Part shown: positions 10,102 to 58,035 of the stretch, piece after piece
How the letters are laid out: every line of letters starts with the position of its first letter
Numbering within the stretch: the first letter of the stretch is position 1
Assembly (NCBI RefSeq): GCF_023006325.1
Contig: NZ_JAINDF010000008.1
Location: 1-64,000 of the forward strand
Direction: 5' to 3'
Origin: Kordiimonas marina
GTDB lineage: Bacteria > Pseudomonadota > Alphaproteobacteria > Sphingomonadales > Kordiimonadaceae
DNA: 64,000 bases
Notes under the pieces: model-generated
Told to the model about the DNA's origin: nothing
Databases searched by the model: none
Seen by the model: the letters and a program-made list of their open reading frames with translations, nothing else
Position numbers and translations under genes: made by a program

Positions 10102-11655
10102 TTACGCTTTCTCCATCACCAGATCGCCGACGGCACGGCAAACGACGCGCGTGGCACCTCCAGGCAAATATTGAAGGGGAACGGCTTCCAGGTTGACTAT
10201 TTCGATGGTGTCCGGGTTTGCCCCGGCGGCAATGGCAGCTTCCGAGGCCCGCGTTTTCGCGTCCTGAAGTGCTTCGTCCCGCGTGTCTTCTGCGATGTGG
10301 TAAATCCGGTCGACTTCACCGCTGATCTGGCCGATCGCAGCGCCGACGGCGTTTGCGACCCCGGCATGGTCAGGAGCATGGGCTTCGGATACGCCTTCAA
10401 GCGGCCGGCTGATCAGGACATGGCCGCCGCCCACCAGGATCATCGGAATATCATCTTTGGACGTCTTCATCCGGTCGATGCCGTCCTCGGCCAACCGGTG
10501 GATTGCATCTTGGGCCGCGAAGACCAGTCCGGGGTCCAACGTTTCCACGAGGCTCTTGTCCCCAAAATCAGCATTGCCGGACGCGACCGCGATATCGCTT
10601 GCGGTCAGTGTCTGGCCACCGAATATTTTGGCTTCTTCGAGAAGGCGGAACGCCACGGAGTCCGGCCCCACGGTTACTTTCCCGCCATCTGCGCGGATAC
10701 GACTGCCGCCGCCAAGACCGATGGATAGAATATCGGGCATCCGGAAATTGGTGCGGACCCCACCCACATCCACATGGACGCTGGACTGACGTGGGAACCC
10801 GTTGACCAGCACGCCCACATCGGTGGTGGTGCCGCCAATGTCGACGACGATGGCGTTCTTGAGCCCGGTAAGCCACGCCGCGCCCCGGAGGCTGTTGGTC
10901 GGGCCGGCCGCGAACGTAAGAACGGGATATTGCCGCAGTAGGCTGGTCGGCATCAGGGTGCCATCGTTCTGGCTGACAAAGAATGGCGCCGTGATGCCAA
11001 GGCTTTCCAGGGCCCGGCCGAAGGCATCCGCCACATGGTCCGCGAGGGCACGGAGGCTGGCGTTCATGATCGCGGCATTTTCCCGCTCCAGTAGGCCTAC
11101 ACGCCCCAGTTGGGACGACAGCGAAATGCTGGCGGAGGGGACAACCATCTTGATGAGCTCGGCAGCCCGTATCTCCTGCTCAGCATTGAGCTGGCTGAAG
11201 ATACCGGCGATTGCCACCTGCTCGATGCCCTTGGCCTTGATCTCTTCCGCGGCGGCTGTGATTGCCGCTTCGTCGAGGGGCGCTATCAACCGGCCATCAA
11301 ACTCATAGCCACCGCCGATCATGGCAAAGCCGCCGAAAACGGCATTCTTCATGGCGTCCGGCCAGGTGGAGAAGGGAGGGATACCGCGCCCGGCCGGAGC
11401 GCCAATACGCAGGGCAAAGACCTGAGAGAGGCCCTTGGCCTGCACGAAGGCGTTGGTGAAATGTGTCGTGCCGATCATGACGCAATCAATGGCATCACCC
11501 GTGGTTCCCGTCTCTTCAAGGATGGCGCCGATGGCCGCCTCAATCCCGTCGCTGACGTTAGCCGTGGTCGGCATCTTTCGAGAGGCAAGGACCAAGTCGC
11601 CGTCCATCAGGACTGCGTCGGTATTTGTCCCGCCTACATCTACACCAATACGCAT
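10102..11655 (-). CDS. Hydantoinase/oxoprolinase (HyuA-like) family protein
   Basis: A 517-residue ATPase-fold protein of the HyuA/OplA group. Two phosphate-binding loops are visible, MRIGVDVGGTNTDAVL at the N-terminus and VVDIGGTTTDVGVLVNG in the middle, both of the actin/HSP70/sugar-kinase type. It is shorter than the roughly 690-residue HyuA of ATP-dependent N-methylhydantoinases, and no HyuB gene is nearby, so hydantoin opening cannot simply be assumed. I start at ATG 11655, with GAGGTG just upstream, rather than TTG 11667. It is the first gene of the racemase/DUF917/TonB unit, 166 bases after the MalT-like regulator. Confidence 0.87.
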   Translation of the reverse strand: MRIGVDVGGTNTDAVLMDGDLVLASRKMPTTANVSDGIEAAIGAILEETGTTGDAIDCVMIGTTHFTNAFVQAKGLSQVFALRIGAPAGRGIPPFSTWPDAMKNAVFGGFAMIGGGYEFDGRLIAPLDEAAITAAAEEIKAKGIEQVAIAGIFSQLNAEQEIRAAELIKMVVPSASISLSSQLGRVGLLERENAAIMNASLRALADHVADAFGRALESLGITAPFFVSQNDGTLMPTSLLRQYPVLTFAAGPTNSLRGAAWLTGLKNAIVVDIGGTTTDVGVLVNGFPRQSSVHVDVGGVRTNFRMPDILSIGLGGGSRIRADGGKVTVGPDSVAFRLLEEAKIFGGQTLTASDIAVASGNADFGDKSLVETLDPGLVFAAQDAIHRLAEDGIDRMKTSKDDIPMILVGGGHVLISRPLEGVSEAHAPDHAGVANAVGAAIGQISGEVDRIYHIAEDTRDEALQDAKTRASEAAIAAGANPDTIEIVNLEAVPLQYLPGGATRVVCRAVGDLVMEKA

Positions 11656-11680
11656 AATGCACCTCAATGCTGGAAAACCT

Positions 11681-42979: not shown

Positions 42980-43018
42980 TCCTAACACGGGCGCCATGCC
43001 CTAATGTTGTGTGCCGTC

Positions 43019-44431
43019 ATGACTCTCCCCAATAACGACCCCAAGACCGTCATTTCATCCCTCCGCAAGAACCTGGGGTGCCCCCAGGACCTGTTCTACA
43101 GCGCCGCCAACAAGGTGCCGCTTCCTATCATCGAGCGCGCCGAGGGCGTGTATCTATTTGGTGAGGACGGCAAGCGCTATATCGACGTCTCTTCAGGCCC
43201 CGTGGTTTCCAATATCGGCCATGGCAACGCCCATGTGGCGGATGCGATGGCGGCCCAGGCCAAGCGCATGGACTTCGCCTACAGCCGCACCTCGCGCCAC
43301 CGGCCGAACATGGAGCTGACCGCGCGCATTGCCGCGCTCGCGGGGCCGGGGTATGAGCGCGTGTGCCTGGCCTCCGGCGGATCCGAGGCGATGGAAGCCG
43401 CGCTCAAGTTCCTGCGCCAGTATGCGGTTGCCAAAGGGCAGGGGAGCAAACGGACCATCATCAGCTGCAACCCGTCCTATCATGGCGGCACCATTGGTAC
43501 GCTCTCGATCACCGGCGACGATGCCTTGAGGCCGTTCCTGGACGGCTTCTCGATCCCATCCGAAAAGATCCCGGCCGCGCTCACCTACCGCACACCGGCC
43601 GGGACGGACGCCGAGGCTTACGCCCGCCAGTGCGCCGACGCACTCGATGCCAAAATCCGCGAATTGGGCGCGGAGAACATACTTTGTTTCGTTGTCGAAC
43701 CGGTTGGCGGCCTGTCGACCGGCTGCAACGTGCCGCCCGATATCTTCTTCAACCGCGTGCGCGACATCTGCACCACACATGGCGTGTATCTTGTCTATGA
43801 TGAGGTGCTGTGCGGCACCGGCCGCACCGGCAAGTTCCTGGCTTCCCACCATTATCCGGAGGCGCGGCCGGATATCGTCGTGCTCGCCAAGGGCTTGGGC
43901 TCCGGCTACACGCCGCTTGGCGCCATGCTGGCACCTGCCGCCATGGTGGATGAGCTCGCGGACCTCACCGGCTTCAACTTCAGCCATACCTATAACGCCA
44001 ACCCGGTCACCTGCGCGGCGGGTCTGGCGGTTCTGGATGTCTATGAGAAGGAAGGTCTGGTCAAGCAGGCGGAGACACGTGGCGCTTATCTGCGTGCGGG
44101 CCTCGAAGCTTTGCAGAAGCGTGAGCCGATCATTGGCGATATCCGAGGCCGCGGCATGCTGATGGCGCTTGAGTTCGTGGCCGATCCGGCGACGAAGGCG
44201 ATCCTGCCCGCTGAAACCAACGCGGTCGAACGCATCCGCACGCTTGGTCTGGCACATGGGCTGATGATCTACAGCCGCCGCACAGCAGGCGGCAAAAACG
44301 GCGACTGGATCATGGTGTCGCCGCCGATGACCATCACAGAGGCCGAGTGCGATGATCTCGTGGCGAGGCTGGAGGAAACGCTGGTTGCTTTCCGGGGCGA
44401 GGTGAAGGACCGGCTCGGGCTTGTGCTCTGA
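43019..44431 (+). CDS. Class III aminotransferase
   Basis: A 470-residue PLP aminotransferase: SGGSEAMEAALKFLRQY, NPSYHGGTIGTLSITG, YDEVLCGTGRTG, and Schiff-base K291 in LAKGLGSGYTPLG. A CXXDLFYSAANK-like N-terminus and DIRGRGMLMALEFVAD are typical of aspartate/omega-amino acid aminotransferases. Either ATG 43019 or ATG 43004 could start it; neither has a strong ribosome site, and I prefer the shorter. It lies just after the TonB receptor and converges with the IclR gene. The amino donor is unknown. It differs from the aminotransferases at 3361 and 48732, so three such enzymes act in this window. Confidence 0.87.
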   Translation: MTLPNNDPKTVISSLRKNLGCPQDLFYSAANKVPLPIIERAEGVYLFGEDGKRYIDVSSGPVVSNIGHGNAHVADAMAAQAKRMDFAYSRTSRHRPNMELTARIAALAGPGYERVCLASGGSEAMEAALKFLRQYAVAKGQGSKRTIISCNPSYHGGTIGTLSITGDDALRPFLDGFSIPSEKIPAALTYRTPAGTDAEAYARQCADALDAKIRELGAENILCFVVEPVGGLSTGCNVPPDIFFNRVRDICTTHGVYLVYDEVLCGTGRTGKFLASHHYPEARPDIVVLAKGLGSGYTPLGAMLAPAAMVDELADLTGFNFSHTYNANPVTCAAGLAVLDVYEKEGLVKQAETRGAYLRAGLEALQKREPIIGDIRGRGMLMALEFVADPATKAILPAETNAVERIRTLGLAHGLMIYSRRTAGGKNGDWIMVSPPMTITEAECDDLVARLEETLVAFRGEVKDRLGLVL

Positions 44432-44434: not shown

Positions 44435-45223
44435 TTAGCGGGTCAGCAGGCTGCGGTCGATCTGGGTCGCGGCCTCGCGGAGCACAGGAACGAGCTCCTT
44501 GACGGCGCGGGTCCGGGCCCCTTCGGAATAGGGCATGCCGATATTGAGTGCGGCGCACACGCGGCGGGTACGGTCGCGCACCGGGACGGCAACAGAACAC
44601 AGGCCAAGCTCCAGCTCCTGCTCTACATAAGCAAAACCCTGCGCGCCAACCTTCATGATTTCCTGGCGAAGAAGTGTCCTGTCCGTCAGCGTCCGTCCCG
44701 TCAATTGTTGCGGTGTGAGGTCATCAAGCCAGCTATCGAGCTCCTGCTCGCCCAGGCCGCCCAGCAGGACCCGGCCCATTGAGGCGCAGAAGGCGGGCAG
44801 CCGGGCGCCGACACCCAGGGTAACCGCCATGATCTTCTTGGCCGCCACGCGCTGGACATAAACAATCTCATGCCCGTCGAGAACCGACATGGAACAGCTT
44901 TCCCCTGTCTTCCGGACCACATCCTCCATGATCGGCAATGCGAACTCGGTCACCGACAGGGACGATAGATAGCTGAAGCCAAGGTCGAGGATGCGTGGGG
45001 TCAAACTAAACTGGCGGCCGCTCTGGCTGACATAGCCCAGATACTTGAGGGTCAGGAGCATACGCCGGACCACGGCACGCGAAAGACCGGTGATTTCGGC
45101 TAGCTCGGACTGGCTCATGGCGCCGCGCTGGTTGAAGGCCAGAATGACCGTCAACGCCCGGTCAAGCGACTGCACATAGTCCGATCCTTCCTTGAAGGCG
45201 TCGCGCGGTTCAGGGCTGGTCAT
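44435..45223 (-). CDS. IclR-family transcriptional regulator
   Basis: A 262-residue IclR protein with an N-terminal winged helix-turn-helix (MSQSELAEITGLSRAVVRRMLLTL at about 37-60) and a GAF-like effector domain (about 85-255; FAYVEQELELGLCSVAVPV is the family signature). It is closest in style to PcaR/PobR aromatic-pathway regulators. It is divergent from the ALDH/CoA-transferase genes, with an inverted repeat between, and is the likely controller of them. ATG 45223 or GTG 45232 could start it. Confidence 0.88.
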   Translation of the reverse strand: MTSPEPRDAFKEGSDYVQSLDRALTVILAFNQRGAMSQSELAEITGLSRAVVRRMLLTLKYLGYVSQSGRQFSLTPRILDLGFSYLSSLSVTEFALPIMEDVVRKTGESCSMSVLDGHEIVYVQRVAAKKIMAVTLGVGARLPAFCASMGRVLLGGLGEQELDSWLDDLTPQQLTGRTLTDRTLLRQEIMKVGAQGFAYVEQELELGLCSVAVPVRDRTRRVCAALNIGMPYSEGARTRAVKELVPVLREAATQIDRSLLTR

Positions 45224-45284
45224 TTGGTGCACTGTTTTTCCCCAGAAAAAGATCTGTTTAGGCGTGTCTCAGCATAGATTGCTG

Positions 45285-45314
45285 TTGACAGCTACCGTGG
45301 CACAGACCTACATA
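45285..45314 (+). promoter_or_regulatory. Candidate promoter for ALDH operon
   Basis: TTGACA (45285-45290), an 18-base spacer, then TACATA (45309-45314). The -35 is perfect and the -10 fair. The IclR-type dyad at 45327 lies just downstream, a repressor-like position. Confidence 0.35.
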
Positions 45315-45326
45315 TTTATGCAATAT

Positions 45327-45342
45327 GTGAATTATTGTTCAC
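45327..45342. promoter_or_regulatory. Inverted repeat, likely IclR operator
   Basis: GTGAA and TTCAC arms around a 6-base spacer, inside the AT-rich divergent region between iclR-type and ALDH genes. Confidence 0.45.
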
Positions 45343-45461
45343 TATTCGCACAAAATGCAAGCCTAAAATGCACCACACGCCATTTTGGCTGCGGGCATGG
45401 GCTGGGGGACCAGTGTGCGGACCGGCGACCGGCCGCCCTGAAGGGAAGGGTGACAGGGATC

Positions 45462-47030
45462 ATGAGCTTCAGTTTGACCTATTCGACCATGTTCAATCCG
45501 CCGGAGGAGATGCATGAGCGTTTCGATGCGGCCGCCACGCGTGTGCGCGCGTCGCTCGGCAAGCGGCATGGCCTTTCGATCGGCGGTGAAGAGGTCATGA
45601 CCGCGACATTCGAGCCAGTCTTTAGCCCCATCGATCATGCTTGCCGGTTGGGGGACTTTGCTGTTGCAGATGCAACACATGTGGACGCAGCTGTTGCGGC
45701 GGCCCGCGCCGCCTTCGACGGCTGGCGCCATAGGACGATGGCGGACCGCCTCGCCATCCTGCGCCGCGCGGCCGACATCATCGAGGAGCGCGTCTATGAC
45801 ATGGGTGCGGCCGTCGCGCTTGAGGTTGGCAAGAACCGCATGGAAGCGCTGGGTGAGGTTCAGGAAACCGCCGACTTTTTCCGCCACTATTGCGACGATT
45901 TCGAAAAGAACGAAGGCTTCGACCGCCGCCTGCCGAACGACCCGCTCGACGGTTGGACGTCCACCAACCGCAGCGTAATGAAGCCCCACGGCGTATGGGC
46001 CGTCATCGTGCCCTTCAACTTCCCGTTCGCGCTTGCGGGCGGTCCGATCGCGGCCGCGCTCGTGACCGGCAACACGGTGGTCATGAAGGGCGCGCCGACC
46101 ACGCCCTGGTCCGGCCGCATGCTGGCCGAATGCCTGAAGGATGCGGGCCTGCCCGCCGGCGTGTTCAACGACCTGGGCGGCGGCAGCGATGAAGTCGGCC
46201 GCGCGCTCGTGAGCCACCGCCATGTTGCAGGTGTGACCTTCACTGGCTCGCATGAGGTCGGCATGGCGATCCAGCGCCAGATGCTGAACGGCCCGTGGCC
46301 CAAGCCGGTGATCGCCGAAATGGGCGGCAAGAACGCCTGCTACGTTTCAAAGCACGCGGACCTTGAGCGCGCCGTCCTCGGCATCAGCCGCTCGGCCTTC
46401 GGTCTCAGCGGCCAGAAATGCTCGGCGCTGTCCCGGGTTTATGTTGATGAAGAGGTGGCGGCTGAGCTGCTTGATCGTCTTGCCAAACAAACGGACTCGC
46501 TCGCTGTGGGTGATCCGCTCGACCGCGCGGTCTATATGGGGCCGGTGGCGACCCGCGAAGCCTATGAGCGCTATCAGGCTGTGGTGCCGGAACTTGCGGC
46601 TGATGGCGGCAATATCCTCGCGGGCGGTCATACGCTGACCGACGGTGCGCTGGCGAACGGCTATTTCGTGGCGCCGACGCTGGTGGCGGCGCCCAAGGAG
46701 CATCCGCTCTATGCCCGCGAACTGTTCCTGCCGATCCTGATGGTCGCCACCGTCAAGGACCGTGACGAAGCCATGGCGGAAATCAACGCCTCACCGCTTG
46801 GCCTCACTGCGGGCGTCTACGGTAATCAGGAGGAGGTGGACTGGTTCCTTGATCAGGTCGAGGCGGGTGTGACCTACGTCAACCGTCCGCAGGGTGCCAC
46901 TACCGGTGCCTGGCCTGGGTACCAGCCGTTCGGCGGCTGGAAGGGTTCGGGCTGCACCGGCTGCGCCATCGCGTCCTTCTATTATCTGGCCCGGTATATG
47001 CGCGAGCAGTCGCAAACGGTTGTGGAGTAG
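45462..47030 (+). CDS. Aldehyde dehydrogenase (P5C-dehydrogenase-like)
   Basis: A 522-residue NAD(P) aldehyde dehydrogenase. Catalytic C320 lies in LSGQKCSALSRVY and general base E286 in IAEMGGKNACYV; the PFNFPFALAGG segment resembles the 1-pyrroline-5-carboxylate dehydrogenase branch. Aminotransferase neighbours make an amino-acid-derived semialdehyde a good candidate substrate. The open frame extends upstream to 45192, but that would cross the promoter and operator; ATG 45462, with AGGGATC before it, fits the family N-terminus. First gene of the unit with the CoA-transferase (8-base gap). Confidence 0.88.
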   Translation: MSFSLTYSTMFNPPEEMHERFDAAATRVRASLGKRHGLSIGGEEVMTATFEPVFSPIDHACRLGDFAVADATHVDAAVAAARAAFDGWRHRTMADRLAILRRAADIIEERVYDMGAAVALEVGKNRMEALGEVQETADFFRHYCDDFEKNEGFDRRLPNDPLDGWTSTNRSVMKPHGVWAVIVPFNFPFALAGGPIAAALVTGNTVVMKGAPTTPWSGRMLAECLKDAGLPAGVFNDLGGGSDEVGRALVSHRHVAGVTFTGSHEVGMAIQRQMLNGPWPKPVIAEMGGKNACYVSKHADLERAVLGISRSAFGLSGQKCSALSRVYVDEEVAAELLDRLAKQTDSLAVGDPLDRAVYMGPVATREAYERYQAVVPELAADGGNILAGGHTLTDGALANGYFVAPTLVAAPKEHPLYARELFLPILMVATVKDRDEAMAEINASPLGLTAGVYGNQEEVDWFLDQVEAGVTYVNRPQGATTGAWPGYQPFGGWKGSGCTGCAIASFYYLARYMREQSQTVVE

Positions 47031-47038: not shown

Positions 47039-47890
47039 ATGGCGGCTTTTCTGTCGTTAGAGGATGCCATCGCCACCCATGTCAAACCCGGCATGTGTGT
47101 GGCGCTTGAAGGCTTCACTCACCTCATTCCGTTCGCGGCCGGGCATGAGATCATCCGTCAGGGGATCACGGGCCTCCACCTTATGCGCATGACGCCGGAC
47201 CTCCTGTACGATCAGATGATCGGCATGGGCGTGGCGGACACGCTGACCTTTTCCTGGGGCGGCAACCCGGGTGTGGGCTCGCTGCACCGGCTTCGGGACG
47301 CGGTCGAGAAGGGCTGGCCCAACAAGCTCGTCCTCAACGAACACAGCCACGGTGAAATGTCGGTCGCCTATTCGGCGGGGGCTGCCGGGCTGCCACACGG
47401 CCTGATGAAAGGCCATTCGGACACTGACCTCAGGCCCCTGCAAACGGGCCGGACGGCGGAGGTCGAATGCGTCTTCACCGGTGCGCCGCTCACCGCCGTG
47501 CGTGCAGTAAACCCGGATGTCACCATCCTCCATGCCCAGAAGGCGGACCGGGCCGGTAACGTGCTCCTCGAAGGCATCACGGGCGCCGCGCGGGATGCCG
47601 CTTTCGCCGCCAAAGCGGTGATCGTGACGGTGGAGGAGATTGTCGATGACCTTGGGGCCCCGATGAATGCCGTGGTGCTGCCGCGCTTTGTTGTCACCGC
47701 TATCGCCGAGGTGCCAGGTGGTGCCTACCCGAGCTATACCCACGGCTATTATGGCCGGGACAATAGCTTCTATATCGCCTGGGATGAGGTCGCGCGTGAC
47801 CGTGACCGTTTCCGCGACTGGATGGACCGCCATGTGGTGAAGGCCGCCAGCCACGGCGCCCACCTCGAAGCTTTGGGAGTGCTGGCATGA
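47039..47890 (+). CDS. CoA-transferase subunit A (GctA-like)
   Basis: A 283-residue class I CoA-transferase alpha subunit, with GFTHLIPFAAGHEIIRQG near the N-terminus, FSWGGNPGVGSLHRLRDAVEKG and a Rossmann-like fold. It resembles glutaconate/3-oxoadipate CoA-transferase A. It binds CoA and pairs with the next protein to move CoA from a donor (succinyl- or acetyl-CoA) to a carboxylic acid. The product of the upstream aldehyde dehydrogenase is the natural acceptor. Stop overlaps the next start by 4 bases. Confidence 0.87.
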   Translation: MAAFLSLEDAIATHVKPGMCVALEGFTHLIPFAAGHEIIRQGITGLHLMRMTPDLLYDQMIGMGVADTLTFSWGGNPGVGSLHRLRDAVEKGWPNKLVLNEHSHGEMSVAYSAGAAGLPHGLMKGHSDTDLRPLQTGRTAEVECVFTGAPLTAVRAVNPDVTILHAQKADRAGNVLLEGITGAARDAAFAAKAVIVTVEEIVDDLGAPMNAVVLPRFVVTAIAEVPGGAYPSYTHGYYGRDNSFYIAWDEVARDRDRFRDWMDRHVVKAASHGAHLEALGVLA

Positions 47891-48690
47891 CCGGGAAGAC
47901 CTACACAAGCGGCGAGATGATGACGGTGGCTGCCGCGCGCCTTTTGCCGGACGGCGCCGTCTGCTTCGTTGGTATCGGCAAGCCGAGCGCGGCCTGTGTG
48001 CTTGCGAGCATGATCCATGCGCCTAACCTGGTGCTGATCTACGAATCCGGCACCGTGGGCACGCGGCCATCTGTGCTGCCGCTCTCCATCGGTGACGGTG
48101 AGTTGGCCGACACTGCGGACGCCGTGGTGCCCCTGACTGAAATCTTCAGCCATTACCTGCAGGGCGGGCGCATCGACGTCGGCTTCCTGGGGGCGGCGCA
48201 GATCGACCGGTTCGGCAACCTCAACAGCACGGTGATCGGCCCCTATGACGCGCCTTCGACCCGCCTGCCGGGGGCAGGTGGCGCGCCGGAGATCATCACC
48301 CATGCCCGCGATATTTTCGTGATCATGAACCAGACCAAGCGCGGCTTCGTCGACAAGCTTGATTTCCGCACGAGCGCCGGCCTCCTGAACGGCGGTGGCG
48401 AGCGGCGGCGCAAGAATTATCCCGGCCGTGGCCCCAGCGTGGTGGTGACCGATTTCGGTCTTCTCCGTCCGGACGCAGAAACCGATGAACTGACGCTCGT
48501 GAGCCTGTTCGACGGCGCGAAGGCGGAGGACGCGGTGGCCGCAACCGGCTGGCCGCTCCGGGTTGCCGGAAAGCTCGACGTGATCGCGCCGCCCACCACG
48601 GAAGAACTCGAGGCGCTTCGCGACCTAAACGCCCGAACCGAGGCTGCGCATCGGACCCCGGTGAAGCTTCATCTCAAGAAAACAGCCTGA
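47887..48690 (+). CDS. CoA-transferase subunit B (GctB-like)
   Basis: A 267-residue beta subunit of the same enzyme, starting with ATGA overlap. The catalytic glutamate is E53 in LIYESGTVGTRP; a glutaconate-CoA-transferase B-like ESG motif, rather than the SENG motif of the succinyl-CoA:3-oxoacid type, points to a dicarboxylate or similar acid as acceptor. Other landmarks are GAAQIDRFGNLNSTVIG and the Gly-rich loop near 87-95. Confidence 0.88.
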   Translation: MTGKTYTSGEMMTVAAARLLPDGAVCFVGIGKPSAACVLASMIHAPNLVLIYESGTVGTRPSVLPLSIGDGELADTADAVVPLTEIFSHYLQGGRIDVGFLGAAQIDRFGNLNSTVIGPYDAPSTRLPGAGGAPEIITHARDIFVIMNQTKRGFVDKLDFRTSAGLLNGGGERRRKNYPGRGPSVVVTDFGLLRPDAETDELTLVSLFDGAKAEDAVAATGWPLRVAGKLDVIAPPTTEELEALRDLNARTEAAHRTPVKLHLKKTA

Positions 48691-48731: not shown

Positions 48732-50057
48732 ATGAAAAACCATCATATCAAAACCGCACTGCCCGGCCCCAAGGCAATCGAACTCATGGCGCGTGACAAG
48801 GCGGTGATTTCGCCGTCCTACCCGCGCGACTACCCCTTCGTGATGTCTCACGGCAAGGGTGCGGAAGTGTGGGACGTGGACGGCAACCGCTTTCTTGATT
48901 TCATGTCCGGCATCGCGGTTTGCTCGACCGGCCACAGCCACCCGGAAGTGGTGGCCGCGATCACCGAAGCCGCGCAGAATTTCCTCCATATCTCCAGCGA
49001 CTATTGGCACGGCTATCAGGTGCGCCTGGGCGAGAAACTCAATGAAGTGGCGCCGATGGGCGAGCCGGTCCTGAGTTTCATGTGCCAAAGCGGCACAGAA
49101 GCCGTTGAAGGCGCGCTCAAGCTCGCCCGTTATGTCACCGGCCGCCAGCGCGTCATTGCCTTTCTGGGCGCCTTCCATGGCCGCACCATGGGGTCGCTCG
49201 CCTGCACCGCCAGCAAATACACCCAGCAGAAGGGCTTCTTCCCGACCATGCCGGGCGTGACCCACGTGCCGTACCCGAACCCCTATCGGCCGCTGTTCTC
49301 GGGCGAGGATCAGGGCCAGGCCGTGTTGGATTACATGGAAAAAATGCTCTTCCAGGCCAACGTGCCGGCAAGCGAAGTCGCTGCCGTGCTTATCGAGCCC
49401 CTGCAGGGCGAAGGCGGCTATCTGGTGCCGCCGGCGGGCTTCCTTGAGGGCCTGCGCGCGCTGTGTGACCGTCACGGTATTCTGCTGATTTTCGATGAGG
49501 TCCAGTCAGGTGTCGGCCGCACCGGTAAGATGTTCGCGTGCCAGCACACGGGCGTGAAGCCGGACATCATGACGCTCGCCAAGGGCCTCGGCTCCGGTAT
49601 GCCGGTGGGCGCGGTCGTCGCCAAAAAGACCATTATGGAACAGTGGGCGCGCGGCGCACATGGCAACACCTATGGCGGCAACCCGGTCTGCTGCGCCGCG
49701 GCGCTGGCGACCCTCGACCTAGTCGAACGTGAATATGCCGCGAACGCCGCCGACGTCGGTGCCTATTTCATGGACCGCCTCCGCGATATGGCGACGCGTT
49801 ATGACGTGATCGGCGAGGTCCGCGGCCACGGCCTGATGATCGGCATGGAGCTGGTGGAGGACCGCGAAAGCAAAACACCCGCGGTGGACTTCTGCGACAA
49901 GCTTCTGACCAAAGCCTATCATAACGGGCTTCTGCTGCTGTCGTGCGGCATCAGCACCGTGCGGTTTATCCCGCCCTTGATGATCACCAAGGCGGATGTG
50001 GACGAAGCCATGGAAATGCTGGAAGCCAGCTTCAAGGAACTTCTGGCGGAAGCCTGA
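48732..50057 (+). CDS. Class III aminotransferase (4-aminobutyrate/acetylornithine type)
   Basis: A 441-residue PLP enzyme: SGTEAVEGALKLARYVTGR, FLGAFHGRTMGSLACT, FDEVQSGVGRTGKMF, and K284 in LAKGLGSGMPVGAVV. The family suits GABA, 2-aminoadipate-like or other omega-amino acids. Third aminotransferase in the window, in the same orientation as, and 41 bases after, the CoA-transferase. A route of amine or omega-amino acid to semialdehyde, then acid, then acyl-CoA is complete within 43-50 kb. The start is preceded only by an A-rich GGAATTAAGAC. Confidence 0.88.
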   Translation: MKNHHIKTALPGPKAIELMARDKAVISPSYPRDYPFVMSHGKGAEVWDVDGNRFLDFMSGIAVCSTGHSHPEVVAAITEAAQNFLHISSDYWHGYQVRLGEKLNEVAPMGEPVLSFMCQSGTEAVEGALKLARYVTGRQRVIAFLGAFHGRTMGSLACTASKYTQQKGFFPTMPGVTHVPYPNPYRPLFSGEDQGQAVLDYMEKMLFQANVPASEVAAVLIEPLQGEGGYLVPPAGFLEGLRALCDRHGILLIFDEVQSGVGRTGKMFACQHTGVKPDIMTLAKGLGSGMPVGAVVAKKTIMEQWARGAHGNTYGGNPVCCAAALATLDLVEREYAANAADVGAYFMDRLRDMATRYDVIGEVRGHGLMIGMELVEDRESKTPAVDFCDKLLTKAYHNGLLLLSCGISTVRFIPPLMITKADVDEAMEMLEASFKELLAEA

Positions 50058-50077: not shown

Positions 50078-52609
50078 ATGAAACGGCTGTCGGCGGCAAT
50101 AATAGGGGGGCTGCTTGTGACAGCCGCCCTCACGCCAGTTCAGAACGCATGGGCCGAAAGCGGCCGCGTGCCGGCCATGGGGAAGGTTGACCATCCCCAC
50201 AGCTACTACTGGCGGGAAATGTATCTTCCCCAACTGACGGCGGGGCCTTCCGCCGTCGCCTTCAGCCCGGACGGCAAGAGCGTCATCTATTCGATGGCGG
50301 GCTCGCTGTGGCGGCAGGAAGTCGGCTCAGGACGCGCGGTCGAACTGACCGCAGGTCATGGTTATGACCTCCAGCCCGACTGGGCGCCCGATGGCCGCAC
50401 GGTCTATTTCTCCCGGAAGGACGGCGATGCCTACAACCTGATGCGGCTTGACCTTGCAAGTGGCAAGGTCACTGCGCTCACGACCGGTGACGGCGTGAAT
50501 GTAGAGCCGCGTCTGTCGCCCGACGGCAAGCACATCGCCTATGTTTCCAGCGCCGTTACCCACCATTTCAATCTCTATGTCGCCGATGTGACGGACGCGG
50601 GAATCGCCAACGCCCGCTTCGCCGTCACGCCGCGCGAAAGCAAGATCGACCGCTACTATTACGGCAAGGCCGACCATGCGGTGAACCCGAGCTGGAGCCC
50701 GGATGGCAAGCGCATTTACTATGTCAGCAACCGTGAGGTGGCGATGGGCAGTGGTGACATCTGGTCGGTCGCGGCCGATAACCCGGCTGACATGAAGAAG
50801 GTCCTGAATGAGGAGACCACCTGGGCCGCGCGGCCCGAGTTGGCGCCCGACGGCAAGCGGCTGCTTTATTCCAGCTACCACGGCCGCCAGTGGAACCAGC
50901 TGTGGCTGACCACGCCCGAAGGCCTGTCACCCCTGCCGCTCACGTTCGGGGACTATGACCTCCATGCCGCGCGCTGGTCGCCGGACGGTAAGCGCGTTGC
51001 CTACACCAGCAACGAAACCGGCGGCCTGACCCTGTGGGTGCAGGAAGTGGTCGGCGGCGCCCGGACCGAGATCGTCGCCAAGGAGAAGGTGTGGAAGCGG
51101 CCGATGCATGCGCTCACGCTGACGGCGGCGGATGATGCGGGCAAGACCCTGTCCGCGCGCATGAGCGTGCTGTCTGCCGACGGCCGCTATTATGCGCCCT
51201 CTGATGTGCGCATCCATGCCGATGACGCCTTCGACCCTAAAACGCAGACACAGGAAACCCACTATTTCCATTGTCCTGCAAGCTGCACGATCATGGTGCC
51301 GGAGGGTGCGGTGACGGTATCCGCCATGGCCGGGTTCGCGCGGGTGCCGGTTACGGAAAAGCTGATAGTTAAGCAAGGCGACCTTCAGGAAAAGCTGACC
51401 CTCAAGGCTGATGCTCTGCCAGCGCGGTTTGGTAGCTTCCTGTCTGCCGACCAGCATGTGCATATGAATTATGCCGGCCAGTATAAGCAGACCCGCGAAA
51501 GGTTGGCCCTCGAAGCCAAGGCCGAAGGACTGGATATCATCTATAACCTCGCCGTCAACAAGGAGGAGCGCATTCCGGACATCACGGAATTCGCGCGCGG
51601 AACCTATCAGGCGGATGGTGTCACCATTTTCCAGGGGCAGGAATATCATTCCAGCTTCTGGGGGCACCTGGGTCTTCTGAACCTCGAGGACCATTACCTG
51701 ACGCCCGATTTCACCAGCTACCGCCATACGGCGATGGCGTCGCCTTACCCGCATAATGGTGTGGTGATCGACCTTGCGCATAAGCAGCACGCGATCGCGG
51801 GCTATGTGCACCCGTTCGACAGTGTGCCGGATGTCACCAAGCCGATCAGCCACATGCTGCCTGCGGATGTGGCGATGGGCCGGGCCGACTATCTGGAGAT
51901 CGTCTCGTTTGCCGACCACAAGTCCACCGCGGCTGTCTGGTACAAGTTCCTGAACCTTGGCTACCATCTGGCCGCGGGCGCGGGCACGGACGCCATGACC
52001 AACTATGCCTGGCTTCGGGGGCCGGTGGGCCTCAACCGGCTTTATATCAGCGGTACCGACCGCACGCCGCGCACGCTGACTGCCGCGATCAAGGCCGGGC
52101 ATTCCTTCGCCACCGACGGGCCGCTCCTCGGGCTGCTGGTCAATGGCCAGGCCCCGGGGTCGACCATTGATCTGAAGGCGCCGGGCAAGGTGCGGGTCGA
52201 TGCCGCCGTGCGCTCGCTCACGCCGCTGTCCGACATGGAAGTGGTGTTCAACGGCAAGGTGATCGCGCACCTCAAGAAAAGTGAGCATGGCCGCCATGGA
52301 AATCTGCTGAAGGATGTGCGCATCACCGGCTCCGGCTGGCTACTCCTGCGCGCCAGCGACCCGAACCCTTCGCCCTACGTGCAGGACCTTTACCCCTACG
52401 GCACCACCAACCCCGTGTGGATCAATGTGAAGGGCCGCCCGCACAAGGCACCGAAGGACGCCCAGTATTTTGCCGACTGGCTGGCCCAGACGATCAAGGT
52501 GGTTGAAGGCCGCACGGACGATTTCAATACGGCGGAAGAAAAAGCCGCCACGATCAATTATCTGAAAGACGCACGGGCGCGGTATCTCGCACGCGCCAAG
52601 GGGGAATAA
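50078..52609 (+). CDS. Beta-propeller/CehA-McbA metallohydrolase fusion
   Basis: An 843-residue exported protein: signal peptide (to about 32), a TolB/PD40-type beta-propeller (about 50-360, repeats such as AFSPDGKSVIYS, SPDGKHIAYVS, SWSPDGKRIYYVS), then a CehA/McbA metallohydrolase domain of the PHP-like group with H460/H462 in ADQHVHMN, GQEYHSSFWGH, GYVHPFDS and the Asp of GAGTDAM. CehA and McbA hydrolyse carbaryl-type carbamates or amides; here the natural substrate is unknown, though the S9 peptidase starts 2 bases later and suggests peptides or amides. ATG 50078 follows GGGGAGGATG. Confidence 0.85.
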   Translation: MKRLSAAIIGGLLVTAALTPVQNAWAESGRVPAMGKVDHPHSYYWREMYLPQLTAGPSAVAFSPDGKSVIYSMAGSLWRQEVGSGRAVELTAGHGYDLQPDWAPDGRTVYFSRKDGDAYNLMRLDLASGKVTALTTGDGVNVEPRLSPDGKHIAYVSSAVTHHFNLYVADVTDAGIANARFAVTPRESKIDRYYYGKADHAVNPSWSPDGKRIYYVSNREVAMGSGDIWSVAADNPADMKKVLNEETTWAARPELAPDGKRLLYSSYHGRQWNQLWLTTPEGLSPLPLTFGDYDLHAARWSPDGKRVAYTSNETGGLTLWVQEVVGGARTEIVAKEKVWKRPMHALTLTAADDAGKTLSARMSVLSADGRYYAPSDVRIHADDAFDPKTQTQETHYFHCPASCTIMVPEGAVTVSAMAGFARVPVTEKLIVKQGDLQEKLTLKADALPARFGSFLSADQHVHMNYAGQYKQTRERLALEAKAEGLDIIYNLAVNKEERIPDITEFARGTYQADGVTIFQGQEYHSSFWGHLGLLNLEDHYLTPDFTSYRHTAMASPYPHNGVVIDLAHKQHAIAGYVHPFDSVPDVTKPISHMLPADVAMGRADYLEIVSFADHKSTAAVWYKFLNLGYHLAAGAGTDAMTNYAWLRGPVGLNRLYISGTDRTPRTLTAAIKAGHSFATDGPLLGLLVNGQAPGSTIDLKAPGKVRVDAAVRSLTPLSDMEVVFNGKVIAHLKKSEHGRHGNLLKDVRITGSGWLLLRASDPNPSPYVQDLYPYGTTNPVWINVKGRPHKAPKDAQYFADWLAQTIKVVEGRTDDFNTAEEKAATINYLKDARARYLARAKGE

Positions 52610-52611: not shown

Positions 52612-54612
52612 ATGACTGTATCTTTTTGGAAGGCTGCCGCAGCGGCCCTGGTCCTGACAACGCCAACATGGGGGGCGGATCATCAGCCGTTTTCGATGGC
52701 GGATTTCCATAAGCTTGCCGATCTTTCAGGCCCTGAGCTGTCACCGGATGGTAGCCGTGTCGTTTATGCGGCATCCACTCACAATCTGGATTCCGATGCG
52801 CCGGAGAGTGACCTTTATGTGGTGCCTTATAAGGGCGGCAAGGTCGAGAAGCTGACCGACACACCGTTCGTCAGCGAATGGGCACCCAAATGGGCGCCGG
52901 ATGGCTCAGGCATCGCTTTTCTGTCGGACAGCGGCAAAGCTAAAACGACCCAGATATGGCTGATGTCCGCGAAGGGTGAGGGCGCACACCAAGTCACCAG
53001 CGTGCCGAATGGAGTCACCGATTTTGACTGGTCGCCGGACAGCACCCATATCGTGTTCATCAGCGAGCCTGCAGGCCCGACCGCGGGCAAGGACAGCCGC
53101 GGCGAAGACAAACCGCCGCTCCCGATCGAAATCCACCGTTTCCAGTTCAAGGAAGACTATCGCGGGTTTCTGACCAATAACCGGCAGCAGTTGTTCCTGG
53201 CTGACGTGAAGACCGGCACCAGCGTGCAGCTCACCACCGGCGACTATGACAACTGGTTGCCGTCCTTCGCGCCCGACGGCAAGCATATCGCCTTCGTCTC
53301 CAAGCGCGATGGTGATGCCGACCGCAACCTGAACTTCGACATCTTCGTGATGGAGCCGAAACCGGGCGCGCCGGTCAAGCAGATCAGCCATTTCAAGGGC
53401 ACGGATATCGACCCTTACTGGGAAAGCCGCCCCATGTGGTCACCCGACAGCAAGAAGCTGGTGTGGCTGCGCTCGGGCGAAAGCAAGTGGATCTATTATA
53501 AGCCGTGGGACCTTGTGGTCGCGGATGTTGAGACCGGCAAGGAAAGCTACCCGGCGCCGCGGGATCACTTCGTCTACAAGCCGCGTTTCAGTCCGGACGG
53601 CAAGTCGATCCTCGCGCTCATCGAGAATCCGGAAAACACCTGGCTCGCCCGTGTCGACCTGAAGTCTGACAAGGTGACTTACCTCACCAAGGGCAAGCGC
53701 TTCGGCTATGATTTCGATGTCGCCAAGGACGGCCATATCGTCATCCTCGATGGCGACGACAAGACGCCCTATGCGGTCTCGGCGGTTGAGAAGACGCAGC
53801 GCCCGCTCTCGAACAACAACGACTTCCTCAAGAATGTCGCGCTTCAGGGCACCGAGGATTTCAAGTTCATGAGCGATGGTGTCGAAATCCACGGCATGAT
53901 CATGAAGCCGGTCGGCTATGTGCCGGGCAAGCGCTACCCGACTATCGTGCGCGTGCATGGCGGGCCGGTTTACCAGTTCAGCCATGAGTTCGAGTATGAC
54001 TGGCAATATTACGCCGCGCATGGCTTCGCCATCGTCGCCATCAACCCGCGCGGGTCCTCAGGCCGTGGCTTCAAGTTCGCAAGTGCTATCTATGCCGACT
54101 GGGGCAATGTGGATGTGAAGGACGTGCTCCGCGGGGTCGACAAGGTGGTCGAGATGGGCATCGCCGACCCGAACCGGCTGGGCGTCGGCGGCTGGAGCTA
54201 CGGTTCCATCCTCACGGACTATCTGATTGCCTCCACCACCCGCTTTAAGGCGGCGGTGTCGGGCGCGGGCGCGGGCAATATGTTCGGCATGTACGGCAAC
54301 GACCAATATAGCCGCGAATATGAGCTGGAGCTCGGCACGCCCTGGAAGAACTTCAAGACCTATGTGCGCCTGAGCTACCCCTTCCTGCATGCGGACCGGA
54401 TCAAGACGCCGACCCTGTTCCAGTGCTCAGAAAAGGATTTCAACGTGCCGTGCCTTGGGGCCGAGCAGATGTATCAGGCGCTCCGGTCGAACAATATCGA
54501 CACGCGGCTCGTGATCTATCCGGGCCAGAACCACGGCATTATCGTGCCGAGCTATCTGGAACACCGCCTGAGGCAGACCCTCGGCTGGTATGAGCGTTTC
54601 CTGAAGCATTGA
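52612..54612 (+). CDS. S9 family (acylaminoacyl/dipeptidyl) peptidase
   Basis: A 666-residue serine peptidase with signal peptide (cut near WGA-D), an N-terminal seven-blade propeller, and a catalytic alpha/beta-hydrolase domain: nucleophile S529 in GGWSYGSILTDYL, HGGP oxyanion region VRVHGGPVYQF, and His in PGQNHGIIVP. Family members remove dipeptides or acylated residues from oligopeptides in the periplasm. Only 2 bases separate it from the propeller-CehA gene, so they are one transcript. A strong terminator follows. Confidence 0.92.
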   Translation: MTVSFWKAAAAALVLTTPTWGADHQPFSMADFHKLADLSGPELSPDGSRVVYAASTHNLDSDAPESDLYVVPYKGGKVEKLTDTPFVSEWAPKWAPDGSGIAFLSDSGKAKTTQIWLMSAKGEGAHQVTSVPNGVTDFDWSPDSTHIVFISEPAGPTAGKDSRGEDKPPLPIEIHRFQFKEDYRGFLTNNRQQLFLADVKTGTSVQLTTGDYDNWLPSFAPDGKHIAFVSKRDGDADRNLNFDIFVMEPKPGAPVKQISHFKGTDIDPYWESRPMWSPDSKKLVWLRSGESKWIYYKPWDLVVADVETGKESYPAPRDHFVYKPRFSPDGKSILALIENPENTWLARVDLKSDKVTYLTKGKRFGYDFDVAKDGHIVILDGDDKTPYAVSAVEKTQRPLSNNNDFLKNVALQGTEDFKFMSDGVEIHGMIMKPVGYVPGKRYPTIVRVHGGPVYQFSHEFEYDWQYYAAHGFAIVAINPRGSSGRGFKFASAIYADWGNVDVKDVLRGVDKVVEMGIADPNRLGVGGWSYGSILTDYLIASTTRFKAAVSGAGAGNMFGMYGNDQYSREYELELGTPWKNFKTYVRLSYPFLHADRIKTPTLFQCSEKDFNVPCLGAEQMYQALRSNNIDTRLVIYPGQNHGIIVPSYLEHRLRQTLGWYERFLKH

Positions 54613-54679: not shown

Positions 54680-55852
54680 TCATTTTTTAGCGGGAAGCAA
54701 CCGACCGTGTTTTTTGAGAATGGCCAGAAGTTTCGCCTGCGGGATGCCCTTGACGTAAGAGCCCATGTTGCCCTGCATGTCGCGCCCGGCGATCAGCGCA
54801 TTGACGATGGCTTCCTCTGTCGCCTCGACGGTGCCGAGGAACAGCGGGTCCATGTCATCGTTTGCCAGCATGGTCACGGTCATGGGGGCGCCGTCCTGCC
54901 CTGCGTTCGCGTTGGCGGTGGAGAAGGCGGCGAAAATGTCGCCCGAGCCATTGCCGGCGTAGGAGCCGACGCGGGCGAGCCCCATCCCCGCGCGCTTGGC
55001 CATGCGCTTCAGCTGGTGCGGCAGCAAAGGCGCGTCGGTCGCCACCAGAATGATGATCGAGCCGGTGTCACCGTTCGGGCCACCGGGCTTATGGTAGATC
55101 ATGTCGTCGGTGAGCTCCTGGCCCACGGGGATGCCTGCGATGGTCAGCGTTTCGCGCACACCATAGTTGGCCTGGACGAGCACGCCGACCGTATAGCTTT
55201 TATCCCGTACCTTGACGACGCGGGACGCGGTGCCGATGCCGCCCTTGAATTCGTGGCAGATCATTCCGGTGCCGCCCCCGACGCCACCTTCGGCAACGGG
55301 TCCGCCCTTGGCGGCGCGGATCGCCTCGAACACATGCTCGGGCTTCACATGGAAGCCGTTGATGTCATTGAGCTCGCCGTCCCAGGTTTCGGCGACCACC
55401 GGCAGCGACCACCAATATCCGCTCGAATCTGCGCCGCCCTGCATCACACGCCACTTGATCGCCGCGTCGCGGACGACGCCGACCGAATGAGTGTTGGTCA
55501 GCAAAATCGGCCCCTCGATGAAGCCGGATTCGTCGATCCACTGAGTGCCGGTCATCTCGCCGTTGCCATTGAGGGCGAAGCTGGCGCCGAACACCGGGAT
55601 GTCCTTGGTCCTGGCCCCGCGCGGCAACACGGCGGTCACGCCCGTGCGCACCGCCTTGCCGCCCGCCAGGTCTTGCTTCAGGGTCACCTGGCCCACGGTC
55701 ACGCCGCCCACGTCGGTGATGGCGTTCAAGGGGCCCGGCATGCCCATGAAGGGAATGCCCAGGTCTCGCGCGCGCGGCGTGGCGTCCGCGGTAGCGGTGG
55801 TTGTCATCAGGACCCCGGCCAACAGGGCCAAAAACGGCGCACGAAGTTTCAT
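54680..55852 (-). CDS. P1 (DmpA/BapA-type) N-terminal-nucleophile peptidase
   Basis: A 390-residue exported peptidase of family P1: signal peptide to about residue 23, ARDLGIPFMGMPGPLNAITDV, the LLTNTHSVGVVRDA segment and the Gly-rich EGGVGGGTGMICHEFKGGIG (188-207) typical of this autoprocessing family. Known members are D-/L-aminopeptidase DmpA and beta-peptidyl aminopeptidase BapA, which release N-terminal D- or beta-amino acids. I start at ATG 55852, with GGGGGAAC upstream; upstream frame extension is not needed. It converges on the S9 gene and is divergent from the TMADH-like gene. Confidence 0.87.
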   Translation of the reverse strand: MKLRAPFLALLAGVLMTTTATADATPRARDLGIPFMGMPGPLNAITDVGGVTVGQVTLKQDLAGGKAVRTGVTAVLPRGARTKDIPVFGASFALNGNGEMTGTQWIDESGFIEGPILLTNTHSVGVVRDAAIKWRVMQGGADSSGYWWSLPVVAETWDGELNDINGFHVKPEHVFEAIRAAKGGPVAEGGVGGGTGMICHEFKGGIGTASRVVKVRDKSYTVGVLVQANYGVRETLTIAGIPVGQELTDDMIYHKPGGPNGDTGSIIILVATDAPLLPHQLKRMAKRAGMGLARVGSYAGNGSGDIFAAFSTANANAGQDGAPMTVTMLANDDMDPLFLGTVEATEEAIVNALIAGRDMQGNMGSYVKGIPQAKLLAILKKHGRLLPAKK

Positions 55853-55968
55853 AAGGCTGTTCCCCCGGAAAGTGGTTTCGGCTAACAGCATCCACTCTAT
55901 AAGCCCGAAACGGGCAGCAAAGCGAAATAGACAAGAAAACACGATGCGAACAGGGAGAGGGACCCCAA

Positions 55969-58035
55969 ATGACGCGCGACTCACGCTACGATATTCTGTT
56001 CGAGCCGGTCAAAATCGGCCCGGTAACCGCCAGGAACCGGTTCTATCAGGTGCCGCACTGCAACGGCATGGGCCACGCCATGCCGGAAGCGCATGCCGCC
56101 ATGCGCGCCGTGAAGGCCGAAGGCGGCTGGGCGGTGGTGACGACGGAGGAGTGCGAAATCCACCCCTCCGGCGATGTGTCGCCCTATGTGGAGGCGCGGC
56201 TTTGGGATGACCATGACATCCCCGCGCTCAGGCTCATGTGCGACAAGGTCCATGCCCATGGCAGCCTGGCTGCGGTGGAACTTGTCCACAATGGCCCCAC
56301 GGCCTCGAACCTCTTCAGCCGCGAGGTGCTGTTAGCCCCCTCGCATCAACCCAGCAAATACGGCACGCCCCACCAGGCGCGCGCGATGGACCTTGAAGAC
56401 ATCCGTGAATACCGCCGCTGGCACAAGGAGGCCGCGCTCCGTGCCAAACGCGCCGGGTTTGACATTGTTTATGTCTACGCAGGTCACGACCTCAGCCTGC
56501 CCATGCACTTCCTGCAAACGCGCCGCAATCACCGCTCGGACCAGTATGGCGGCAGCCTTGAGAACCGCATGCGCCTGTTCCGCGAGGTGATCGAGGACAC
56601 TAAGGACGCGGTGGGGGATACCTGCGCCGTCGCGGTGCGCTTCGCGGTTGATGAAATGATCGGTGCGGGCGGCATGACGGTGTCTGAAGCCAAGGATGTC
56701 GTCGGCGCCCTTGGCGATCTGCCGGACCTTTGGGATGTCAACGTCGCCGCCTGGTATAACGACAGCATGACCAGCCGTTTCGCGAATGAGGGTGCGCAGG
56801 AACCCTTCATCGCCTGGGTCAAGAGCTGTACCCGCAAGCCTGTGGTCGGCGTCGGCCGCTTCACGTCGCCGGATACCATGGTCTCGCAGATCAAGCGCGG
56901 CGTGCTCGATATGATCGGCGCGGCGCGGCCGTCGATCGCCGATCCGTTCCTGCCGAAGAAGATCGAGGAAGGCCGGATTGAGGACATCCGCGAATGCATC
57001 GGCTGCAACATCTGCGTGACCGGTGACATGACCATCACGCCGATCCGCTGCACCCAGAACCCGACCATGGGCGAAGAGTGGCGCAAGGGCTGGCACCCGG
57101 AGCGGGTTGCCGAAAAGGCAAGCGACGCCCGCGTGCTAGTGGTCGGCGCTGGCCCCGCGGGGCTCGAAGCCGCCCGCACGCTCGGCGCGCGCGGCTATGA
57201 GGTGCATCTCGCTGAAGCCAGCCGTGTGCTTGGCGGGCGGGTCGACCGCGAAGCCAAACTGCCGGGCCTGGCTGAATGGGGCCGCGTGCGCGACTGGCGC
57301 GTCGGCCAGATAGACAAGCTCTCCAATATCTCGGTCTACCGGGAATCGCCCTTAAGCGCCGACGACGTGTTCGAATTCGGTGCCGAGCATGTGGTGGTGG
57401 CGACCGGCAGCCGGTGGCGCGCGGACGGTTTCGGCCGCTCGGCCGACGGCCCGGTTATCGCGGACGGCACGCCTGCGGTACTCACGCCCGATGACATCAT
57501 GGACGGCGTCACGCCCAAGGGCCATGTGGTGGTCTATGACGACGACGGCTTCTATATGGCCAGCGTGATGGCGGAAAAGCTGATCGCGCTCGGCTGCCGC
57601 GTGACTGTCGTGACGCCCGAAGAGATGGTGGCGAGCTGGAGCGAAAACACGCTCGAATACCGCCATATCCAGAAGCGCCTCCATGCGCTTGGGGTCACGC
57701 AGGTCACCAGCCAGTCGCTGCTGTCGTGGGACGGCGCGGTGGCACGGTTTGGCCACAGCTGGACCGATGCGGAGATGACGCTGGCCGCTGATGCCTTCAT
57801 GCCGGTGACTATGCGCCTGCCGGTCGATGGTCTCTACCGGGACCTCAAGGCACGGGCGGAAGGCTGGGCCGACGCGGGTATCCGCTCGGTCAAGCTGATC
57901 GGGGACGCGCTCGCACCGGGGCTCATCGCCCACGCGGTCTATGCCGGCCACCGCTACGCGCGGGAGCTGGAGGCCGGACCTATCGCTGACGTGCCATTCC
58001 GCCGCCACCTGCACACGGCGGTGACGGACATTTAA
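55969..58035 (+). CDS. Trimethylamine-dehydrogenase-family iron-sulfur flavoprotein
   Basis: A 688-residue amine-dehydrogenase-like protein, opening DILFEPVKIGPVTARNRFYQ as in trimethylamine and dimethylamine dehydrogenases. C31 in VPHCNGMG fits the cysteine that bonds FMN; Y170, H173 and D265 match the catalytic Tyr-His-Asp; C343, C346, C349 and C361 form the 4Fe-4S set; GPAGLEAARTLG starts the ADP-binding half. Of the aromatic bowl holding trimethylamine, W262 is kept, but the Tyr is E61 and a second Trp is D353, so the substrate is probably another amine. Electrons would go to an electron-transfer flavoprotein. ATG follows GGGAGAGGG. Confidence 0.88.
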   Translation: MTRDSRYDILFEPVKIGPVTARNRFYQVPHCNGMGHAMPEAHAAMRAVKAEGGWAVVTTEECEIHPSGDVSPYVEARLWDDHDIPALRLMCDKVHAHGSLAAVELVHNGPTASNLFSREVLLAPSHQPSKYGTPHQARAMDLEDIREYRRWHKEAALRAKRAGFDIVYVYAGHDLSLPMHFLQTRRNHRSDQYGGSLENRMRLFREVIEDTKDAVGDTCAVAVRFAVDEMIGAGGMTVSEAKDVVGALGDLPDLWDVNVAAWYNDSMTSRFANEGAQEPFIAWVKSCTRKPVVGVGRFTSPDTMVSQIKRGVLDMIGAARPSIADPFLPKKIEEGRIEDIRECIGCNICVTGDMTITPIRCTQNPTMGEEWRKGWHPERVAEKASDARVLVVGAGPAGLEAARTLGARGYEVHLAEASRVLGGRVDREAKLPGLAEWGRVRDWRVGQIDKLSNISVYRESPLSADDVFEFGAEHVVVATGSRWRADGFGRSADGPVIADGTPAVLTPDDIMDGVTPKGHVVVYDDDGFYMASVMAEKLIALGCRVTVVTPEEMVASWSENTLEYRHIQKRLHALGVTQVTSQSLLSWDGAVARFGHSWTDAEMTLAADAFMPVTMRLPVDGLYRDLKARAEGWADAGIRSVKLIGDALAPGLIAHAVYAGHRYARELEAGPIADVPFRRHLHTAVTDI

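What the first reader, a model, noticed from the sequence alone, without database searches (positions are those of the whole stretch)
50078..52609. Propeller fused to a CehA/McbA metallohydrolase
A TolB-like propeller precedes a domain related to carbamate hydrolases, exported and in one transcript with an S9 peptidase. The propeller may gate or present substrate, as it does in S9 enzymes, implying convergent design for peptides or amides.
Basis: partly seen in the sequence, partly recalled or inferred. Interest (0 to 1): 0.55.

Follow-up and report, generated by a model that had tools for sequence, protein, structure and literature searches.

The report
Two-metal PHP hydrolase with TolB propeller
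A secreted bacterial enzyme joins a TolB-like beta-propeller to a relative of carbamate-pesticide hydrolases whose metal site seems to have dropped one of the usual three metals, which may explain how a phosphate-cutting fold came to cut amide or carbamate bonds.

Summary
Window 50078-52609 (+) encodes an 843-aa protein with a signal-like N-terminus, a six-bladed TolB-type propeller (about 54-337), a transthyretin/CnaB-like domain (340-447), a PHP metallohydrolase domain (452-682), a C-terminal beta domain and a helical hairpin. NCBIfam CehA/McbA scores 217.8 bits (cut-off 80). The alpha and beta metal ligands of PHP enzymes are complete (H460, H462, D638; bridge E522; H530, H578), and H530/H539/H578 match the three histidines reported crucial in McbA. 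The three gamma-metal ligands are lost. The two gamma histidines are lost throughout the clade that holds McbA and all fused proteins (kept in 1/31 and 0/31 rows) and kept in other family members (25/25 and 25/25). I propose a two-metal PHP enzyme acting on carbonyl C-N or C-O bonds. The fusion is old (Pseudomonadota, Acidobacteriota, probably Gemmatimonadota) and a minority form. Eleven of 12 ortholog loci hold class-III aminotransferase genes, pointing to amine or amino-acid release. The S9 gene is adjacent in 6 of 10 testable loci. That the propeller gates substrate is untested; 'convergent design' with S9 is not shown. Substrate unknown.

The parts
50078..52609 (+). gene for the propeller-PHP hydrolase (843 aa)
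50078..50155 (+). signal-peptide-like N-terminus, residues 1-26
   Evidence: sequence and hydropathy; pLDDT under 50 for residues 1-31
50237..51088 (+). six-bladed TolB-type propeller, residues 54-337
   Evidence: PD40; model and fold match Z 28.4
51095..51418 (+). transthyretin/CnaB-like domain, residues 340-447
   Evidence: Z 8.6, rmsd 1.7, 76 aligned to the carboxypeptidase D TTL domain 5aq0
51431..52123 (+). PHP metallohydrolase domain, residues 452-682
   Evidence: NF038032; Z 15.8 to 3e38 (match spans TTL to C-beta) and 14.4 to 2anu
51455..51463 (+). alpha-metal ligands H460 and H462
51641..51643 (+). bridging ligand E522
51665..51667 (+). beta-metal ligand H530 (= McbA H467)
51692..51694 (+). 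H539 (= McbA H477, reported crucial), in 11 of 12 orthologs
51809..51811 (+). beta-metal ligand H578 (= McbA H504)
51989..51991 (+). alpha-metal ligand D638
51995..51997 (+). M640 where trinuclear PHP enzymes have the gamma-metal His of the DxH motif
51467..51469 (+). N464, invariant in 21 of 21 fused rows, near the lost gamma Asp
51557..51571 (+). N494-R498 segment where the TDH motif stood; N494 and R498 invariant in 21 of 21 fused rows
52124..52597 (+). C-terminal beta domain (683-788) and helical hairpin (789-840)
52612..54612 (+). S9 peptidase with its own PD40 propeller, GWSYG nucleophile motif
48732..50057 (+). class-III aminotransferase (over the PRK05769 cut-off)
47039..48690 (+). CoA-transferase, two subunits (47039-47890, 47887-48690)
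45192..47030 (+). aldehyde dehydrogenase (listed start may be too far upstream)
44435..45232 (-). IclR-type regulator
43004..44431 (+). second class-III aminotransferase
54680..55984 (-). S58 (DmpA-type) peptidase
55969..58035 (+). OYE-type flavoprotein

Best explanation
It is an exported hydrolase of the McbA-like branch of the PHP superfamily that works with two metals, not three. Shown by sequence and model: alpha ligands H460, H462, D638, bridge E522 and beta ligands H530, H578 are all kept, while the gamma-metal Asp/His/His are gone. Inferred: the alpha/beta pair activates the water; the leaving group, an amine or alcohol on a carbonyl carbon, needs no metal Lewis acid of the kind phosphate esters use; and invariant N464, N494 and R498 take over the emptied gamma pocket to hold the carbonyl or the leaving group. 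Inferred: the substrate is an amide- or carbamate-linked amine or amino-acid derivative met in the periplasm. The released amine is taken up and catabolised by the neighbouring aminotransferase, aldehyde dehydrogenase and CoA-transferase. The six-bladed propeller, fixed to the catalytic half in the model, selects or docks substrate; this step is the weakest.
For: NF038032 217.8 bits. Nine-position ligand table: alpha/beta positions in 12 of 12 orthologs; gamma His positions 4 and 9 kept in 25/25 and 25/25 family rows outside the clade against 1/31 and 0/31 inside it; ten further rows first left out also keep position 4 in 10 of 10 and position 9 in 9 of 10. Roles of alpha, beta and gamma metals from passages of PMC11656708, which uses 3E38, the top VIA-align fold match of the C-terminal half here. 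Independent profile alignment of the two groups, 99.5% and E 5.3e-23, lines up the same motifs, and 3e38's own sequence aligns to the outside group. McbA histidines 467, 477, 504, reported crucial in a review passage (PMC8292978), equal H530, H539, H578; McbA is periplasmic. N464, N494, R498 in 21 of 21 fused rows. Class-III aminotransferase in 11 of 12 ortholog loci, none of 6 loci of other fused relatives; the twelfth, L026, has an amine oxidase and an amino-acid permease. Full-length model pTM 0.85.
Against: No metal content, activity or structure exists for this protein in anything I saw. The second fused clade has an Asp at or next to the first gamma position in 9 of 11 rows, and Gemmatirosa keeps one gamma-position His, so a third metal with other ligands is possible. 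The column of the TDH motif is the least certain in the alignment. CehA's four reported histidines (313, 315, 453, 495) could not be mapped on any sequence held. The aminotransferase link comes in two cluster types (CoA-transferase or BKACE) and does not name a substrate; the linkage test used my own rough gene calls.
Confidence: 0.5

Rival explanations
1. It is a canonical three-metal PHP phosphoesterase whose gamma metal is held by other residues.
For: The fold matches PHP phosphoesterases (Z 15.8 to 3e38, 14.4 to 2anu); 9 of 11 rows of the second fused clade have an Asp near the first gamma position.
Against: Gamma positions 4 and 9 are Val and Met in 12 of 12 orthologs; the nearest studied relative with the same loss, McbA, is a carbamate hydrolase.
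Confidence: 0.15
2. The propeller gates or presents peptides to the PHP site as in S9 enzymes, and the protein is a peptidase acting together with the S9 enzyme.
For: The S9 gene is adjacent in 6 of 10 testable ortholog loci and within the fetched locus in 7 of 10; S58, M20 and amidohydrolase genes lie nearby; a conserved HSYYWREMY-type segment precedes the propeller in the ortholog consensus.
Against: S9 adjacency is absent in L025, L026, L028 and L029; the propeller is a six-bladed TolB type; propeller face loops are not unusually conserved (BC 0.60, DA 0.58, CD 0.54, against AB 0.74, which holds the repeat's own PDG motif).
Confidence: 0.25
3. The propeller is only a docking module (for an envelope protein) and plays no part in catalysis.
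For: Active McbA lacks it (no Pfam hit; no hit to a profile of this propeller); only 2 of 39 other family loci carry it; TolB itself is a binding platform (recalled).
Against: It is kept full length in all 12 orthologs and in the second fused clade; the model places both halves with pTM 0.85.
Confidence: 0.35

Closest known systems
McbA, carbaryl hydrolase of Pseudomonas (XWY-1, C5pp)
   Same: Same family by alignment; same kept alpha/beta ligands and same lost gamma ligands; transthyretin-like region before the PHP domain; exported
   Different: No propeller; about 23% identity over half the query; different N-terminal part; no equivalents of N464 and R498 in the alignment
BVU_3505 (PDB 3e38) and the PHP diesterases Sb-PDE/No-PDE
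   Same: PHP fold, Z 15.8 over 228 residues; alpha/beta ligands
   Different: They are trinuclear with gamma ligands Asp, His, His (passage of PMC11656708); these are lost here
TolB
   Same: Six-bladed propeller, Z 28.4
   Different: TIGR02800 only 108.9 bits against 343.15; fused to an enzyme
S9 peptidases with PD40 propellers (neighbouring gene)
   Same: N-terminal propeller before a hydrolase
   Different: Catalytic domain is alpha/beta hydrolase there, PHP here

Membership tests
CehA/McbA family metallohydrolase (NF038032) | score over the curated cut-off of 80 bits | tested here: met
   217.8 bits
McbA-type carbamate hydrolase | histidines 467, 477, 504 of McbA present | tested here: met
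   H530, H539, H578
McbA-type carbamate hydrolase | hydrolysis of N-methylcarbamates | not testable with these tools
   needs an assay
trinuclear PHP phosphoesterase | PHP fold | tested here: met
   Z 15.8 and 14.4
trinuclear PHP phosphoesterase | alpha and beta ligands with bridging Glu | tested here: met
   six of six, 12 of 12 orthologs
trinuclear PHP phosphoesterase | gamma ligands Asp, His, His | tested here: not met
   Ala/Gly, Val, Met in 12 of 12 orthologs
TolB (Tol-Pal) | score over the TIGR02800 cut-off | tested here: not met
   108.9 against 343.15 bits
S9 peptidase | Peptidase_S9 catalytic domain | tested here: not met
   absent from the protein's Pfam list at E 0.01, present in the next gene

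The most novel reading that the evidence does not exclude
A whole clade inside the CehA/McbA family discarded the third (gamma) metal of the PHP superfamily once and thereby turned a phosphoesterase into a two-metal carbonyl (amide/carbamate) hydrolase. In the propeller-bearing branch an invariant Asn-Asn-Arg set fills the empty site and the TolB propeller forms part of the substrate entrance. NCBIfam NF038032 mixes the two-metal and three-metal kinds under one name.
Probability: 0.35. Interest if true: 0.65.

Novelty: new variant of a known kind. Interest (0 to 1): 0.5.

Why it matters
Carbamate hydrolases of the CehA/McbA type break down widely used pesticides, yet a profile of these orthologs found no relative among solved structures by sequence and where such enzymes come from is unclear. 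If losing one metal is what separates carbonyl hydrolases from phosphoesterases in this fold, that is a simple rule that can be tested by metal analysis and used to sort a large, mixed annotation class. The propeller-bearing clade offers apparently native relatives, in amine-catabolism gene clusters, of the plasmid-borne pesticide enzymes.

Tried and rejected
Canonical phosphoesterase reading: weakened by the loss of the gamma ligands. Inactive-domain reading: rejected, since all alpha/beta ligands are invariant in the orthologs and McbA with the same set is active. S9 convergence: not supported (six blades, linkage not general). A test of propeller faces by loop conservation gave nothing beyond the repeat's own PDG motif. 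Mapping the four histidines reported for CehA (CFD-1) on any sequence held found no fitting offset; the record I first labelled CehA (CFD-2, L041) is nearly identical to McbA and is treated as McbA. Whole-model fold search was filled by propellers, so the C-terminal half was folded alone. phmmer of one family member against the PDB found nothing; a profile of ten did. Ortholog profile A2 against PDB sequences: only a chance hit at E 0.37. An endonuclease Q row leads Foldseek, read as the shared PHP fold. A beta-amino-acid or acetyl-polyamine pathway was considered from S58, BKACE and HDAC-like neighbours and left as a lead only. Literature: searches in the open library showed in their listings no paper on a propeller-CehA fusion or a two-metal CehA/McbA enzyme; passages were read in five papers (PMC8292978, PMC3666897, PMC11656708, PMC5636811, PMC11302072), none in full. 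Subscription papers, including the original McbA and CehA mutant studies, were not seen.

Full report
Observation. Window 50078-52609 (+) is an open frame of 843 aa. Pfam finds PD40 propeller repeats (E 2.5e-38) and NCBIfam finds CehA/McbA metallohydrolase (NF038032, 217.8 bits, cut-off 80, residues 454-783). The next gene, an S9 peptidase, starts 2 nt after the stop; the aminotransferase gene upstream ends 20 nt before the start.

Anatomy. AlphaFold2 on an 11-row alignment gave pLDDT 84.4 and pTM 0.85 for the whole protein, and 88.1 and 0.90 for residues 340-843 alone. Residues 54-337 form a propeller that I read as six sheets from the listed strands; it matches TolB (3iax, Z 28.4, rmsd 2.1, 247 aligned). 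Residues 340-447 match transthyretin-like and CnaB domains (Z 8.6, rmsd 1.7, 76 aligned to 5aq0). The PHP domain follows; the best matches of this half are 3e38 (Z 15.8, rmsd 3.4, 228 aligned, a match that spans from the transthyretin-like part to the C-terminal beta domain) and 2anu (Z 14.4, rmsd 3.1, 193 aligned). A beta domain and a two-helix hairpin close the protein. The N-terminus looks like a signal peptide. McbA, the studied relative, is periplasmic (passages of PMC11302072 and PMC8292978).

Metal site. Passages of PMC11656708 give, for the 3E38 group, alpha metal: His, His, Asp; beta metal: two His; bridge: Glu and water; gamma metal: Asp, His, His; [quoted passage not shown] PMC3666897 passages list nine such ligands for PHP domains in general. 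I aligned 56 PHP regions and read the nine positions. In 12 orthologs positions 1, 2, 5, 6, 7, 8 are H H E H H D in 12 of 12, while the gamma positions are Ala/Gly, Val and Met. In the whole clade of 31 rows (12 orthologs, 11 of a second fused clade, 8 others including McbA) gamma position 4 is His in 1 (Gemmatirosa) and position 9 in 0. In the 25 remaining family rows both are His in 25 of 25. Position 3 is less clean: an Asp is aligned there in 9 of 11 second-clade rows and in 2 of the 8 others, and 3 of the 25 outside rows have Glu or Lys. Ten rows left out at first keep position 4 in 10 of 10 and position 9 in 9 of 10. Two rows of the clade have damaged alpha/beta sites: Croceicoccus (Arg at position 1) and L031. 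An independent profile-profile alignment of 11 ortholog-side rows with 10 outside rows (99.5%, E 5.3e-23) pairs the same motifs, and the outside profile aligns to the 3e38 sequence through its own motifs. The three McbA histidines that a review passage calls crucial (467, 477, 504; PMC8292978) fall without any offset on H530, H539 and H578 of the window protein.

What may fill the gamma pocket. N464, N494 and R498 are invariant in 21 of 21 fused rows; N464 lies two residues after the HxH motif, and N494/R498 where the TDH motif stood. That they replace the gamma metal is inference. PMC3666897 passages note that Arg often replaces lost ligands in degenerate PHP domains.

Distribution and origin. 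In 59 relative genomes, the window's own included, full-length fused proteins occur in 15 (6 orthologs, 9 of the second clade). The genome-contig scan gave 10 loci, 8 of them full-length fused orthologs at 44-73% identity, among them an Acidobacteriaceae assembly (L026). A Gemmatirosa plasmid carries a 31.9% relative covering 89% of the query, with the propeller by profile. Of 39 loci (L046-L084) brought by family searches in 190 class and 398 phylum genomes, 2 carry the propeller; one of these repeats a genome already counted. In a tree of 41 PHP regions the 24 fused rows need two changes (gain or loss), and the gamma-less 31 rows are separated from 10 three-metal rows by a branch with support 100/99. 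Long branches make the position of L046, L070, L031, L030 and Gemmatirosa unsure, as the program warned.

Neighbourhood. I compared 12 ortholog loci (window, L022-L029, L032-L034) by my own gene calls and BLAST. Class-III aminotransferase: 11 of 12; the exception L026 has a flavin amine oxidase and an amino-acid permease. Six loci of other fused relatives had none (L035, L037-L039, L043, L044; gene calls on L043 are poor). The S9 gene is directly downstream in 6 of 10 testable loci and within the fetched locus in a seventh (L028); two loci (L024, L027) end too soon. Two cluster types exist: one with aldehyde dehydrogenase and CoA-transferase (window, L022, L023, L032; L025 in part) and one with a BKACE gene (L024, L027, L028, L033, L034 by BLAST), with HDAC-like genes identified in L028 and L033 and a GNAT gene in L028. 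Both look like amine or amino-acid catabolism.

Mechanism and rivals. My best reading is a two-metal PHP hydrolase for amide or carbamate bonds that feeds an amine to the neighbouring pathway. The metal-site part is well supported by comparison; the substrate class and the propeller's role are inference. A three-metal phosphoesterase, an S9-like peptide gate, and a mere docking propeller remain open at lower odds.

Verdict. The fusion itself is a minority architecture of a named family, already named CehA/McbA in public records. The point worth following is the consistent split of that family by the gamma-metal ligands.

Noticed in passing
window 2346-5503: A LysR gene, a class-III aminotransferase and a BKACE (beta-keto acid cleavage) gene: relatives of the partners that accompany the ortholog in the other cluster type.
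   Followed up: partly
window 6095-11667: Reverse-strand set of TonB receptor, Asp/Glu racemase-like, S-methyl-thiohydantoin desulfurase-like and hydantoinase/oxoprolinase-like genes; related hydantoinase and desulfurase genes also lie near fused relatives in L033 and L039, and the hydantoinase alone in L037.
   Followed up: no
L040 1691-4000 and L041 1430-4000: The N-terminal part of McbA before its own signal peptide (Met at 74) continues in L041 into a stretch that looks by eye like the start of a class-I glutamine amidotransferase, so the reported 73-residue 'transmembrane domain' may be a leftover of a gene fusion.
   Followed up: no
L025: The record is titled Klebsiella pneumoniae but carries a 51% identical ortholog with neighbours like those of the alphaproteobacterial loci; probably a mislabelled assembly.
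   Followed up: no
L044 5899-8376: The Croceicoccus relative has Arg in place of the first metal histidine.
   Followed up: no
window 38338-40416: TPR repeats fused to a sulfotransferase domain, next to a TonB receptor gene.
   Followed up: no
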